Origin: Elainella saxicola E1 | GTDB lineage: Bacteria; Cyanobacteriota; Cyanobacteriia; Elainellales; Elainellaceae | Assembly (NCBI GenBank): GCA_002796835.1 | Contig: LUGL01000012.1 | Location: forward strand, 34,872 to 72,332 | Direction: 5' to 3' | Length of the DNA stretch: 37,461 bases | Part shown: positions 24,884-28,295 of the stretch, in pieces | Numbering within the stretch: the stretch's first letter is position 1 | Layout of the letters: the number at the start of each line of letters is the position of its first letter | Program-made: the position numbers and the translations under genes | The notes under the pieces: generated by a model | Databases searched by the model: none | What the model was told of the DNA's origin: nothing | What the model saw: the letters and a program-made list of their open reading frames with translations, nothing else

Positions 24884-25675
24884 TTATTGACGGACAAACT
24901 CGCGGTCTAGAGCAACTGGTTCTTGAGTCTGTTGCAATTGAGCAACTTGGGCTTCTAGCTGTTCAATCCGATTGAGCAGGGTTCGAATTGCGATCGCTTC
25001 AGCGTCTGGAAGCTGGCCATGCTCTAATGGACTGGTTTGGGTGTTGGTGCGGCAGAGATTGCAAATGTTGCGGCTGGGTGCTCCTACAGCCGTGCACTTG
25101 GTTGGAACAGGCTTAAGGACCACTGATCCAGCTCCAATCCGCGCATAATCCCCAATCTCGATATTGCCGAGCACTTTGGCTCCAGCCCCGATCACAACAT
25201 GATGACCAACGGTAGGATGGCGTTTGCCGACTTCCTTGCCTGTGCCGCCCAATGTGACGCCCTGATAAATCAGCGTGTAGTTGCCGACAATGGCCGTTTC
25301 TCCAATCACAACTCCCATGCCATGGTCGATAAACACACCTTGACCGAGGGTTGCACCAGGATGAATCTCAATGCCGGTAAACAAGCGTCCAATGTGGGAA
25401 ATCAAGCGAGGGAAGAAAATCACGCCCTGCTGATGCAGCCAGTGAGCCAGCCGATGCAACAAGATGGCATGAAAGCCGGGATAGCAGACCAACACTTCCA
25501 ACCAGTGGCGGGCCGCCGGATCGCGATCGAAGATGATTTGAAAATCAGCCTGGATTAGCCGGAAAGCAGCAGTAAGCTCTTGAATCCTTTGTTGAGGCCA
25601 TTGAGAGCAAGATTTACTCCAGTTGGCAGCAAAGGCAAAGGGCGATAAGCGTGAGAGGGGAGAGGACAGTCGCAT
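24884..25675 (-). CDS. nifP: Serine O-acetyltransferase (NifP/CysE type)
   Basis: The protein has 263 residues. After an N-terminal helical region it forms a left-handed beta-helix with hexapeptide repeats, including [30 protein letters not shown] and [27 protein letters not shown]. The catalytic DH of FIDHG and the His of KRHP are present. It makes O-acetylserine for cysteine synthesis; nif-linked paralogues (NifP) support the sulfur demand of cofactor assembly. The C terminus is a coiled coil. It is the first gene of the minus-strand nif arm, and its promoter mirrors that of nifB. Confidence 0.92.
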
Positions 25676-25707
25676 TGGGGCTACGCAAGAGGTGCTATTC
25701 CTCCTGC

Positions 25708-25786
25708 TTATATCAGGTGATGAACAGCGCCTTGATGCAACCGTTGCGGATAGAATTTATTGGATTAATTAGATTTGTACTCAAGC
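25708..25786 (-). promoter_or_regulatory. nifP promoter with candidate CnfR-type element
   Basis: On the minus strand GCTTGAGTACA (25786-25776) is followed after exactly 58 bp by CCTGATATAA (25717-25708), whose TATAAG would serve as -10. Transcription would begin near 25700, about 25 nt before the nifP ATG. The nifB promoter shows the same motifs at the same distance, and 20 of the 29 bases after GAGTACA agree, including CAATAA and TTC. Assignment to CnfR rests on the known nifB/nifP pair in Leptolyngbya boryana. Confidence 0.75.
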
Positions 25787-25964
25787 TTGCAAAGCCACTC
25801 CGTATACCGATCGAAAAAAAAAGATGGGGTGGGGGACAGGTATTTTTTTCTGAGGGAGTCAGTATTTATCAGGGCAGGGATCTAGTATTTTAGGACTCAC
25901 CCTCAAACCCAGGATTAGCAAGCCCTGTAACGACTATTTACAGGATAATTTTGACTCAATCGAG

Positions 25965-25984
25965 CTGTACTCATCTGTACTCAA
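25965..25984. repeat. Tandem 10-bp CTGTACTCA repeat
   Basis: CTGTACTCAT and CTGTACTCAA lie head to tail. In the opposite sense they contain GAGTACA, the core of the two nif promoter elements, so they may be extra activator half-sites. Confidence 0.5.
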
Positions 25985-26017
25985 AGATGAGCTTTTTCAG
26001 ACCAAAAAAGTGTTTCT

Positions 26018-26031
26018 GTATCTATATATAC
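26018..26031. promoter_or_regulatory. NtcA-like site GTA-N8-TAC
   Basis: The sequence fits the NtcA consensus GTA-N8-TAC, in a region where nitrogen control is plausible. It has no clear TAN3T -10 at the usual distance and lies in AT-rich DNA, so it may be chance. Confidence 0.25.
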
Positions 26032-26267
26032 GATACGGTTTTGATTAATTCAATCCCATTAATGGCTAAATATCCTTAAGAAAATCTAAACACGAGATCT
26101 TTGCCTTGAAAAATGATATTTTAGATACAGAATCAACCAGCCGATCGCTTTATCGGCCTGCACTGTATTGGCTGTGCGTTTGTTGACCGTGCTGGGTGTT
26201 CAAACTCAATTCCCTAACATCATGCTGAGTTGGCTCGAAATCATCCTGAATGGTTGGGCTTTGGATA

Positions 26268-26280
26268 GGGCTTGAGTACA
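26268..26280 (+). promoter_or_regulatory. Second upstream copy of GGGCTTGAGTACA
   Basis: This 13-mer is identical to 26455-26467 in the nifB promoter. No CCTGATATAA follows at 58 bp, so it may be an additional upstream binding site and not a promoter by itself. Confidence 0.5.
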
Positions 26281-26353
26281 ATTAATTTTTTGTTAAAACG
26301 GTCACAAAACGATTCAAGATCCTTGCTAAATCAAGCTTTGAATTGAGTGCATA

Positions 26354-26411
26354 AATACTTGAGCCCCTGACAGTAAATACTCGCTCCCTACTGCTAGAAT
26401 ACTCAGTCCCC
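26354..26411 (+). repeat. Three AATACT motifs at exact 22-bp spacing
   Basis: AATACTTGAGCCCC (26354), AATACTCGCTCCC (26376) and AATACTCAGTCCCC (26398) begin exactly 22 bp apart, about two helical turns. They lie just upstream of the nifB promoter element. Binding sites on one face of the DNA are a reasonable inference. Confidence 0.6.
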
Positions 26412-26456
26412 TATCCCCAAAAAATTTTTTCAATCAATCAGGTTGCGAGTTTGAGG

Positions 26457-26535
26457 GCTTGAGTACATTTCCAATCAACTCAATAAGTTCGATTCGACGA
26501 CATGTTTGAGAGGGGCGATCGACCGCCTGATATAA
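26457..26535 (+). promoter_or_regulatory. nifB promoter with candidate CnfR-type element
   Basis: GCTTGAGTACA (26457-26467) is followed after 58 bp by CCTGATATAA (26526-26535), where TATAAA is the likely -10. Transcription would begin near 26543, leaving a leader of about 280 nt before nifB. The layout and much of the intervening sequence match the nifP promoter on the other strand. No cnfR gene is present in this window. Confidence 0.75.
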
Positions 26536-26825
26536 ATCTCGTAACGTCAAGCACTGTAATTCCTCACCTGAAACTCAAATGACTTAATAAAGAGGTTCAA
26601 GAGAGGTTCGAGCAGGATGCGGTGCTAGGAGCGATAGTGCCTTGTCCAATTGGAAATCGCGCCTGTATTCAGGATTATTCATCACCCTTTCAAAACTTCC
26701 CAGCCGAAGGGCCATTCTAACTTGCGTAGGTAAGTTCCTTGGGTGCAGACGCGATTCCACTTTTTTTGATGAGCCACTTGAGCATTTGACGTCAATTGCC
26801 ACCCCTATTTCTGGAAGCTCACTCA

Positions 26826-28295
26826 ATGACACCACCACCTGCCGCGTCTTTGTCTGCTCCTCCAATTACAGATATTTCGGTTACTAAGAATACAGTTACA
26901 CAAAAAAAATCAGGCGGCTGCGGTTGCAGCAGTAATCAATCTGATGCAAAACCTGCAATAGACGATCGCCTGCGGGAACGAATCGAAAAACACCCCTGTT
27001 ATAGTGAAGAAGCGCACCATCATTATGCCAGAATGCATGTTGCAGTTGCGCCTGCCTGCAATATCCAATGTAACTACTGCAACCGAAAATACGATTGTGC
27101 CAATGAAAGTCGTCCTGGAGTTGTCAGTGAACTCCTAACTCCTGAAGAGGCAGCTCATAAAGTTCTCGTGATTGCGGGTAAGATTCCTCAAATGACCGTT
27201 CTCGGCATTGCAGGACCGGGTGATCCCCTCGCAAATCCAGAAAAAACATTCCGGACTTTTGAATTAATTGCGGATAAGGCCCCTGACATTAAACTCTGTT
27301 TGTCTACCAACGGGTTGATGTTGCCTGATCACGTCGACAAGATCAAAGCGCTGAATGTTGATCACGTCACCATCACCATTAATATGGTCGATCCGGAGAT
27401 CGGCACCAAGATCTATCCCTGGGTGCATTATCGCCGCAGACGTTATAAAGGATTAGAAGCAGCTCGGATTCTACATGAGCGGCAAATGGAAGGGTTGCAG
27501 GCCCTCCGAGAAGCAGACATTCTCTGCAAGGTCAACTCGGTAATGATCCCTGGCATTAATGATGATCACCTGGTTGAAGTCGATCAGGTCATTCGTCAAA
27601 ATGGGGCGTTCCTGCACAACATCATGCCGCTGATTTCAGCGCCAGAACATGGCACCTACTTTGGCTTAAACGGCCAGCGCGGTCCCACGCCCAAGGAACT
27701 GAAAAAACTACAAGATGAATGCGCAGACAGCAACATGAAAATGATGCGCCACTGCCGTCAATGTCGTGCGGATGCTGTGGGTCTTTTAGGTGAAGATCGT
27801 TCTCAGGAATTCACCAAGGAGAAATTCCTTGAAATGCCAGTAGAATATAGCCTGGAAGAGCGGCAGAAAGTTCACGCCAAGATTGCAGTTGCCCGCGAAG
27901 AATTGCAGAAGGAAAAGGTGAAAGCCAAGCAGGCTGAAGTCATTCCGAGTCCTAAAATCCTGGTGGCGGTGGCAACGAAAGGTGGTGGATTAGTCAACCA
28001 ACACTTCGGTCATGCTAAAGAATTCATGATTTACGAAGTGGATGCCAGCGAAGCTAAATTTGTGGGTCACCGCAAGATCGATCACTACTGCCAAGGAGGC
28101 TATGGTGAAGATGCTTCACTAGACGGCATCATCAAGACGATCGCCGATTGTAAGGCTATCCTCGTTTCTAAAGTCGGGGAATGTCCCAAGTCAGAACTGA
28201 AGCAAGCTGGCTTAGAAGTCGTTGAGGCTTACGACGTCATCGAAAATGTTGCCCGTCAGTTCTACGATCAGCACTTCGCTTCCAGCACCATCTAG
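26826..28295 (+). CDS. nifB: NifB, radical SAM NifB-co synthase
   Basis: NifB (489 aa) makes the Fe8S9C core of FeMo-co. The radical SAM motif is CNIQCNYC (CxxxCxxC), followed by [20 protein letters not shown] and NTIN-type strands follow, and [15 protein letters not shown] closes the SAM part near residue 330. The C-terminal 110 residues ([23 protein letters not shown] onwards) form the NifX-like carrier domain. An N-terminal SGGCGCSS motif is present. The ATG at 26826 is chosen over a TTG at 26796. It is the first gene of the plus-strand arm. Confidence 0.96.

What the first reader, a model, noticed from the sequence alone, without database searches (positions are those of the whole stretch)
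25708..26535. nifP and nifB are driven by mirror-image promoters with identical 58-bp spacing
Both divergent promoters contain GCTTGAGTACA, then exactly 58 bp, then CCTGATATAA: minus strand 25786-25708, plus strand 26457-26535. In the first 29 bases after GAGTACA, 20 match without gaps (including CAATAA and TTC). The match is too long and too precisely spaced for chance. In Leptolyngbya boryana, CnfR is known to act on a shared cis-element upstream of nifB and nifP, so this is probably its counterpart, here with the element-to-minus-10 distance readable directly. No cnfR lies in the window, so a distant regulator must act on it.
Basis: partly seen in the sequence, partly recalled or inferred. 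Interest (0 to 1): 0.8.

Follow-up and report, generated by a model that had tools for sequence, protein, structure and literature searches.

The report
Divergent CnfR-type nitrogen-fixation promoters
Two back-to-back nitrogen-fixation promoters in a cyanobacterium carry a regulator-binding layout that most of the related nitrogen-fixing cyanobacteria examined share, so they are ordinary members of a known switch, although the spacing between its DNA sites appears to follow the turns of the double helix.

Summary
In detail: GCTTGAGTACA-N58-CCTGATATAA occurs exactly twice in the window, where stated. Each copy is the promoter-proximal part of an array of GAGTACA-type sites (CS1, CS2, CS3) followed by an extended -10 without a -35: the known CnfR-dependent nifB/nifP control region of diazotrophic cyanobacteria. 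The equal spacing is a family trait: 59 of 65 nifB loci have the layout, 75 of 79 gaps being 58-61 nt, and two random members share a gap about 39% of the time. The distant-regulator inference is wrong: a CnfR-type gene lies 2.3 kb beyond the window; a second is on another contig.

Not seen in my paper searches: CS2-CS3 spacing is bimodal. Of 90 readable arrays 57 have 113-118 bp, 32 have 126-129 and one reads 144; none has 119-125. The classes are about one helical turn apart and coexist in 16 genomes. A second locus set has four exceptions in 99. CS3 to -10 is near-constant, with one one-turn-shorter case. CnfR-type sites also precede a ParB-like gene beside the second CnfR. Verdict: new member of a known kind, with a testable helical-phasing rule.

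The parts
24884..25675 (-). nifP (serine O-acetyltransferase)
   Evidence: TIGR01172 cysE, E 1.6e-72; named nifP by its place divergent to nifB
25708..25715 (-). extended -10 of nifP (TGATATAA); predicted start near 25700
   Evidence: family logo
25748..25786 (-). nifP CS3: GCTTGAGTACA plus conserved A/T body TAATTAATCCAATAAATTCTATCC
25892..25899 (-). nifP CS2, degenerate (TGAGTCCT), 116 bp from CS3
   Evidence: print-out of the d=116 position; 2 mismatches to TGAGTACA, so assigned by position and the AAAATACT context; inference
25966..25973 (-). nifP CS1 copy (TGAGTACA), 190 bp from CS3
25976..25983 (-). second nifP CS1 copy (TGAGTACA), 200 bp from CS3, about one helical turn further
26273..26280 (+). 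nifB CS1 (TGAGTACA), 187 bp from CS3
26344..26351 (+). nifB CS2 (TGAGTGCA), 116 bp from CS3
26457..26495 (+). nifB CS3: GCTTGAGTACA plus A/T body CAATCAACTCAATAAGTTCGATTC
26528..26535 (+). extended -10 of nifB (TGATATAA); predicted start A at 26543
26826..28295 (+). nifB
   Evidence: TIGR01290, E 1.9e-202

Best explanation
The 1.1-kb nifP-nifB intergenic region is the bidirectional master switch of this cyanobacterium's nif cluster. Each side carries a promoter made of same-direction GAGTACA-type elements (CS1 about 190 bp and CS2 116 bp upstream of CS3; the nifP CS2 is degenerate) and an extended -10 TGnTATAA with no -35. CnfR, an Fe-S ferredoxin/XRE-HTH activator whose gene lies 2.3 kb beyond the window, most likely binds the elements when its Fe-S clusters are intact (low oxygen). 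CnfR on CS3 (GAGTACA ends at about -76) contacts RNA polymerase at a near-constant distance and stands in for the missing -35. CS1 and CS2, on the same DNA face, strengthen this through a bent or wrapped complex. Shown here: the sites, the spacings, their conservation, and co-occurrence with CnfR-type proteins. Inferred: binding, polymerase contact, oxygen sensing in this strain, and DNA wrapping.
For: The layout occurs exactly twice in the window and in no shuffle. Among 64 cyanobacterial nifB loci plus the window, 59 of 65 have GAGTAC-gap-TGnTATAA (56 on the nifB strand, 3 only on the other); 77 of the 79 hits found in a 30-102 nt range fall at gaps 56-61 (mode 60), and 16 proteobacterial nifB loci have none. 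114 distinct sites give a CS3 consensus TTGAGTACAa..tTAATaAaT..AATAA. No column between -45 and -23 exceeds 0.21 bits, so no -35 is seen, and A is 88% conserved at the predicted +1 (n=120). CnfR matches (E at most 1e-30) are found in 69 of 71 genomes with exact triple arrays and in 92 of the other 317. The gene at L001:2305-3939 has a C-terminal HTH_3 above Pfam's cut-off and N-terminal 4Fe-4S matches that stay below the curated cut-offs; this is the CnfR architecture described. Literature passages: three cis-elements, extended -10 without -35, divergent CnfR-dependent nifB/nifP transcription.
Against: No footprint, start-site map or expression data for this strain. The gene is called CnfR from its architecture and place; it was not compared with a named CnfR sequence. 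The window's nifP CS2 is degenerate (2 mismatches), so three-element status on that side rests on position. Of 65 loci, 6 lack the exact pattern: L017 has only 10 bp of upstream DNA; L041, L042, L063, L064 and L067 were not followed up. This genome has two full-length CnfR-type genes, so which one acts is open. Related genomes are not independent, so the Fisher p of 1e-28 overstates the evidence.
Confidence: 0.88

Rival explanations
1. The motif is bound by another nitrogen or redox regulator (NtcA or another XRE protein), and CnfR acts indirectly.
For: The passage I read says the elements are 'thought to be' CnfR binding sites. NtcA is needed for cnfR2 expression in A. variabilis.
Against: TGAGTACA is not the NtcA palindrome GTA-N8-TAC (recalled). 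CnfR supplied to Synechocystis 6803, which does not fix nitrogen, activates the nifB and nifP promoters (passages). Arrays and CnfR-type proteins co-occur.
Confidence: 0.07
2. The similarity is an accident of local duplication: one promoter is a copied, inverted version of the other and the spacing has no function.
For: nifP and nifB elements share 20 of 29 bases.
Against: The same layout lies before nifB, nifP, nifV and other genes in many genera, also where it serves a single gene with no partner nearby in the fetched stretch, while the sequence between CS3 body and -10 is unconserved. That suggests selection on sites and distance.
Confidence: 0.02
3. Only one promoter-proximal CS3 matters; CS1 and CS2 are relics.
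For: Sites before the ParB-like genes show no CS1 or CS2 at one mismatch or less. The window's nifP CS2 is degenerate.
Against: CS2 is found at 1 mismatch or less in 99 of 114 sites, and CS1 in 92 of those 99. Loss of the first or second site lowers nifB1 transcription by about 50% in A. variabilis (passage).
Confidence: 0.08

Closest known systems
CnfR cis-element of nifB/nifP in Leptolyngbya boryana (Tsujimoto, Kamiya, Fujita 2016, Mol Microbiol 101:411; paper not held, abstract recalled; reference seen)
   Same: Divergent nifP-nifB intergenic region, CnfR-type element, similar gene order. A gap of 60 nt to TGnTATAA puts GAGTACA's end at -76, the distance I recall from the abstract.
   Different: No direct sequence comparison was made. 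The window's nifP side has two CS1 copies 10 bp apart, and this genome has two CnfR-type genes.
nifB1/nifB2 promoters of Anabaena variabilis with CS1, CS2, CS3 (Vernon 2017, not held; described in PMC8510180 and PMC4284476, passages seen)
   Same: Three conserved upstream motifs, extended -10, no -35.
   Different: The Nostocales nifB promoters in my set mostly use the 124-129 bp CS2-CS3 class; the window's nifB uses 116. PMC4284476 calls the motif TGAGTATA; here it is TGAGTACA.
Class I activator-dependent promoters (for example CRP at -61.5 or further upstream; recalled)
   Same: Activator site upstream of -60 at a helix-dependent distance, replacing a poor -35.
   Different: Multi-site same-direction array by an Fe-S/XRE activator; the promoter-proximal distance is nearly fixed, with one one-turn-shorter example seen.

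Membership tests
CnfR-dependent nif promoter | TGAGTACA-type element with A/T-rich body (CS3) | tested here: met
CnfR-dependent nif promoter | Fixed distance from element to extended -10 (gap 58-61 to TG) | tested here: met
   Gap 60 on both sides; family histogram
CnfR-dependent nif promoter | Two further elements CS1 and CS2 upstream in the same direction, nifB side | tested here: met
   Exact CS1, CS2 with 1 mismatch
CnfR-dependent nif promoter | Two further elements CS1 and CS2 upstream in the same direction, nifP side | tested here: inconclusive
   CS1 exact, twice; CS2 only by position with 2 mismatches
CnfR-dependent nif promoter | Extended -10 without -35 | tested here: met
   TGATATAA on both sides; no sigma70-type hexamer pair found there; family shows no conserved -35
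CnfR-dependent nif promoter | cnfR present in the genome | tested here: met
   CnfR-type genes at C55:74640-76271 and C163:18194-19774; called CnfR by architecture, not by comparison with a named sequence
CnfR-dependent nif promoter | Transcription start at the predicted place and loss of expression without CnfR | not testable with these tools
   Needs wet-lab work
CnfR-dependent nif promoter | Direct binding of CnfR to the element | not testable with these tools
   Needs footprinting

The most novel reading that the evidence does not exclude
CnfR promoters are helically phased nucleoprotein platforms. CS3 keeps a near-constant distance to the -10, and spacers change by about whole turns of DNA (CS2-CS3 116 or 127; in a few promoters CS1-CS2; once CS3 to -10), so that all CnfR molecules sit on one face of a bent or wrapped segment. 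The regulon also reaches beyond nif to a ParB-like gene divergent from a second CnfR.
Probability: 0.5. Interest if true: 0.6.

Novelty: new member of a known kind. Interest (0 to 1): 0.42.

Why it matters
The nifP-nifB control region is part of what has been moved into a non-fixing host, with cnfR, to switch on nitrogenase, so a spacing rule for its parts is directly useful for rebuilding nif regulation. If the helical-phase rule holds, it says how a poorly understood Fe-S activator talks to RNA polymerase, and it would help read the CnfR regulon from sequence.

Tried and rejected
A Rfam search of 25500-27000 found nothing at E 1, so no catalogued RNA element explains the region. The sigma70 scanner found only one weak unrelated site. 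I first took the own-genome third match (C163:20541) for chance, then dropped that view when the same arrangement appeared beside CnfR in relatives. The unknown small operon under a CnfR-type promoter in Nostocales looked exotic, but its 98-aa protein has relatives in 132 of 388 genomes (weaker ones are parts of large proteins) and in at least 10 genomes lies within 5 kb of a CnfR match (coordinates compared by eye), so it is more likely a nif accessory operon. A Rayleigh test by period gave a broad optimum (R 0.76 at 10.5, 0.82 at 12), so it does not single out 10.5; the bimodality and the 11-bp difference are the firmer evidence. A/T peaks around CS2 were noted but not tested statistically. 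A first logo script had a slice error and saw only 2 sites; it was redone. G390 (9 hits, tandem repeats) was dropped before the array counts. G411's two overlapping arrays look doubtful but were kept.

Full report
WHAT IS THERE. The pattern GCTTGAGTACA-N{50,66}-GATATAA matches the window exactly twice, at 25786-25708 (-) and 26457-26535 (+), with the same length, and never in 100 shuffles. TGAGTACA occurs six times in the window against 0.64 expected; five copies lie between nifP and nifB, each pointing towards the gene on its own side. nifB (26826-28295, +) and a serine acetyltransferase in the place of nifP (24884-25675, -) are confirmed by NCBIfam.

WHAT IT IS. I collected 80 nifB loci (the best 80 of 583), of which 64 are cyanobacterial and 16 proteobacterial. 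With the window added, 59 of 65 cyanobacterial loci have GAGTAC followed by TGnTATAA at a gap of 56-61 nt: 56 on the nifB strand, three (L012, L031, L061) only on the other. There are 77 such sites (56 nt: 2, 58: 6, 59: 20, 60: 45, 61: 4) and two other hits in the scanned range of 30-102, both at 34; the 16 proteobacterial loci have none. The six loci without it are L017 (only 10 bp of upstream DNA), L041, L042, L063, L064 and L067. In 18 loci, the window included, sites run in both directions. Across 114 distinct sites from a wider set of loci the proximal element reads TTGAGTACAa..tTAATaAaT..AATAA. Anchored on the -10 (120 sites), columns -45 to -23 carry 0.21 bits or less and the predicted +1 is A in 88%. 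So there is an extended -10 and no visible -35.

TWO MORE ELEMENTS. Upstream of CS3 lie CS2 and CS1. In the window's nifB promoter these are TGAGTGCA at 26344 (116 bp) and TGAGTACA at 26273 (187 bp). On the nifP side TGAGTACA occurs at both 190 and 200 bp (25973-25966 and 25983-25976), and a degenerate TGAGTCCT sits at 116 bp.

A SPACING RULE. A search of 388 genomes of the class with GAGTACAN{48,78}GAGTACAN{96,126}GAGTACA matched 72 genomes; the window's own genome is not among them because its CS2 sites are imperfect. After dropping G390 (nine tandem-repeat hits) there remain 92 arrays in 71 genomes. CS1-CS2 is 70-74 bp in 87 of 90 readable arrays (others 46, 58, 63). CS2-CS3 is 113-118 bp in 57 and 126-129 bp in 32, with none at 119-125; one reads 144, probably a parsing artefact in G411. 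After de-duplication by genus and spacing (59 values, 44 genera), Silverman's bootstrap gave no support for one mode (0 of 500); class means are 115.8 and 127.2 bp, that is 11.0 and 12.1 turns at 10.5 bp. Sixteen genomes hold both classes. In a partly overlapping set of loci, searching 106-140 bp, CS2 falls at 114-118 in 37, 124-129 in 58, and elsewhere in 4 (119, 119, 120, 137) of the 99 found among 114 sites. Counter-examples: four promoters at 119-120 bp with CS1 at 202-203 (L023, L034, L035, whose gene I did not check, and L094 upstream of nifV), and L044 and L053 with CS1-CS2 of 80 bp. The CS3 to -10 gap is 58-61 in 121 of the 131 distinct GAGTAC-to-TGnTATAA hits; of the rest, two are at 56 and the others look unrelated, except one: in L141 a site before the ParB-like gene has gap 50, one turn shorter. 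My reading is that CS3 touches polymerase at a nearly fixed distance, while CS1 and CS2 need only be on the same face of the DNA. Genomes are related, so these tests are not independent trials, and the Rayleigh test did not pick out 10.5 bp specifically.

THE REGULATOR. The adjoining stretch of the same contig holds a 544-aa protein with a C-terminal HTH_3 domain (above Pfam's cut-off) and N-terminal 4Fe-4S matches below the curated cut-offs (Fer4 E 6e-4; YfhL-type dicluster E 4e-13) (L001:2305-3939). It lies 2.3 kb past the window's end. This is the CnfR architecture described in PMC8510180; I had no named CnfR sequence to compare. The genome has a second full-length relative, 56% identical, at C163:18194-19774. 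Matches at E at most 1e-30 occur in 69 of 71 array genomes, the two misses (G603, G627) being 84% and 73% complete assemblies, and in 92 of the other 317. Some of these matches are fragments, and some lack the Fe-S part.

WHAT IS KNOWN. From passages of PMC8510180: three conserved cis-elements upstream of A. variabilis nifB1, nifB2 and L. boryana nifB, thought to bind CnfR; loss of the first or second site lowers nifB1 transcription by about 50%; extended -10, no -35. That text places the elements 300-600 bp upstream of the start sites; my geometry puts them within about 290 bp of the start site, and in most Nostocales loci roughly 350-720 bp upstream of the nifB match, so the two do not agree as worded. 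[quoted passage not shown] From passages of PMC4284476: three conserved motifs and a putative extended -10 in nifB1 and nifB2. The 2016 paper on the L. boryana element is not held; I recall from its abstract that the element lies 76 bp upstream of both start sites and is conserved in diazotrophic cyanobacteria, which fits a 60-nt gap. On print: no held paper contains CnfR, ParB and cyanobacteri- together, and none of the nif papers with CnfR listed (20 of 30 listed) contains 'helical'; the other searches were seen as listings only. Most subscription papers are outside that library.

BEYOND NIF. One search scanned 23 loci chosen mainly around CnfR matches. Seven have a ParB-like gene beside CnfR-type genes (L137, L138, L140-L144). 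Four of the seven have a core site (gap 59-60) directly before the ParB-like gene, a fifth (L141) has one with gap 50, and none of these sites shows CS1 or CS2; L143 and L144 have a core site before another ORF instead. In Nostocales a CnfR-type promoter with upstream elements precedes a small operon without Pfam match; all 7 loci that I picked from the cut list have it, one lacking a recognisable CS2.

VERDICT. A real, functional-looking and largely known control region, correctly spotted from raw sequence. The part I did not find in print is the spacing rule, which a reporter series can test.

Noticed in passing
L137:10189-13729 (G000:C163); L138:3432-9925 (G467); L141:7743: A second full-length CnfR-type gene with a ParB-like gene next to it on the opposite strand. 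A GAGTACA-type site precedes the ParB-like gene in 5 of 7 such loci: gap 59-60 in four, gap 50 in L141.
   Followed up: partly
L087-L093 (Nostocales): A CnfR-type promoter precedes a small operon (about 141, 98 and 103 aa proteins) without Pfam or NCBIfam match; relatives of the 98-aa protein lie within 5 kb of a CnfR match in at least 10 genomes.
   Followed up: partly
matches starting at CnfR residue 57-77: CnfR-like proteins about 40% identical whose match starts after the ferredoxin part, in genomes such as G412, G439 and G583; possibly an Fe-S-free branch.
   Followed up: no
window 26543-26826: The predicted nifB leader is about 280 nt long; the leader is also long in Nostocales loci. No Rfam match.
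   Followed up: partly
L138:3432-4058; also L001, L141, L143, L144, L147, L148, L151, L153, L157: A cupin-like gene of about 208 aa recurs in the stretches around CnfR-type genes; in L138 a GAGTACA site with gap 59 to a weaker -10 (TGATACAA) precedes it.
   Followed up: partly
L095: A CnfR-type promoter in a Nostocaceae genome is followed by a 440-aa ORF that by eye looks like an integrase (not searched), suggesting an insertion just downstream of the promoter.
   Followed up: no
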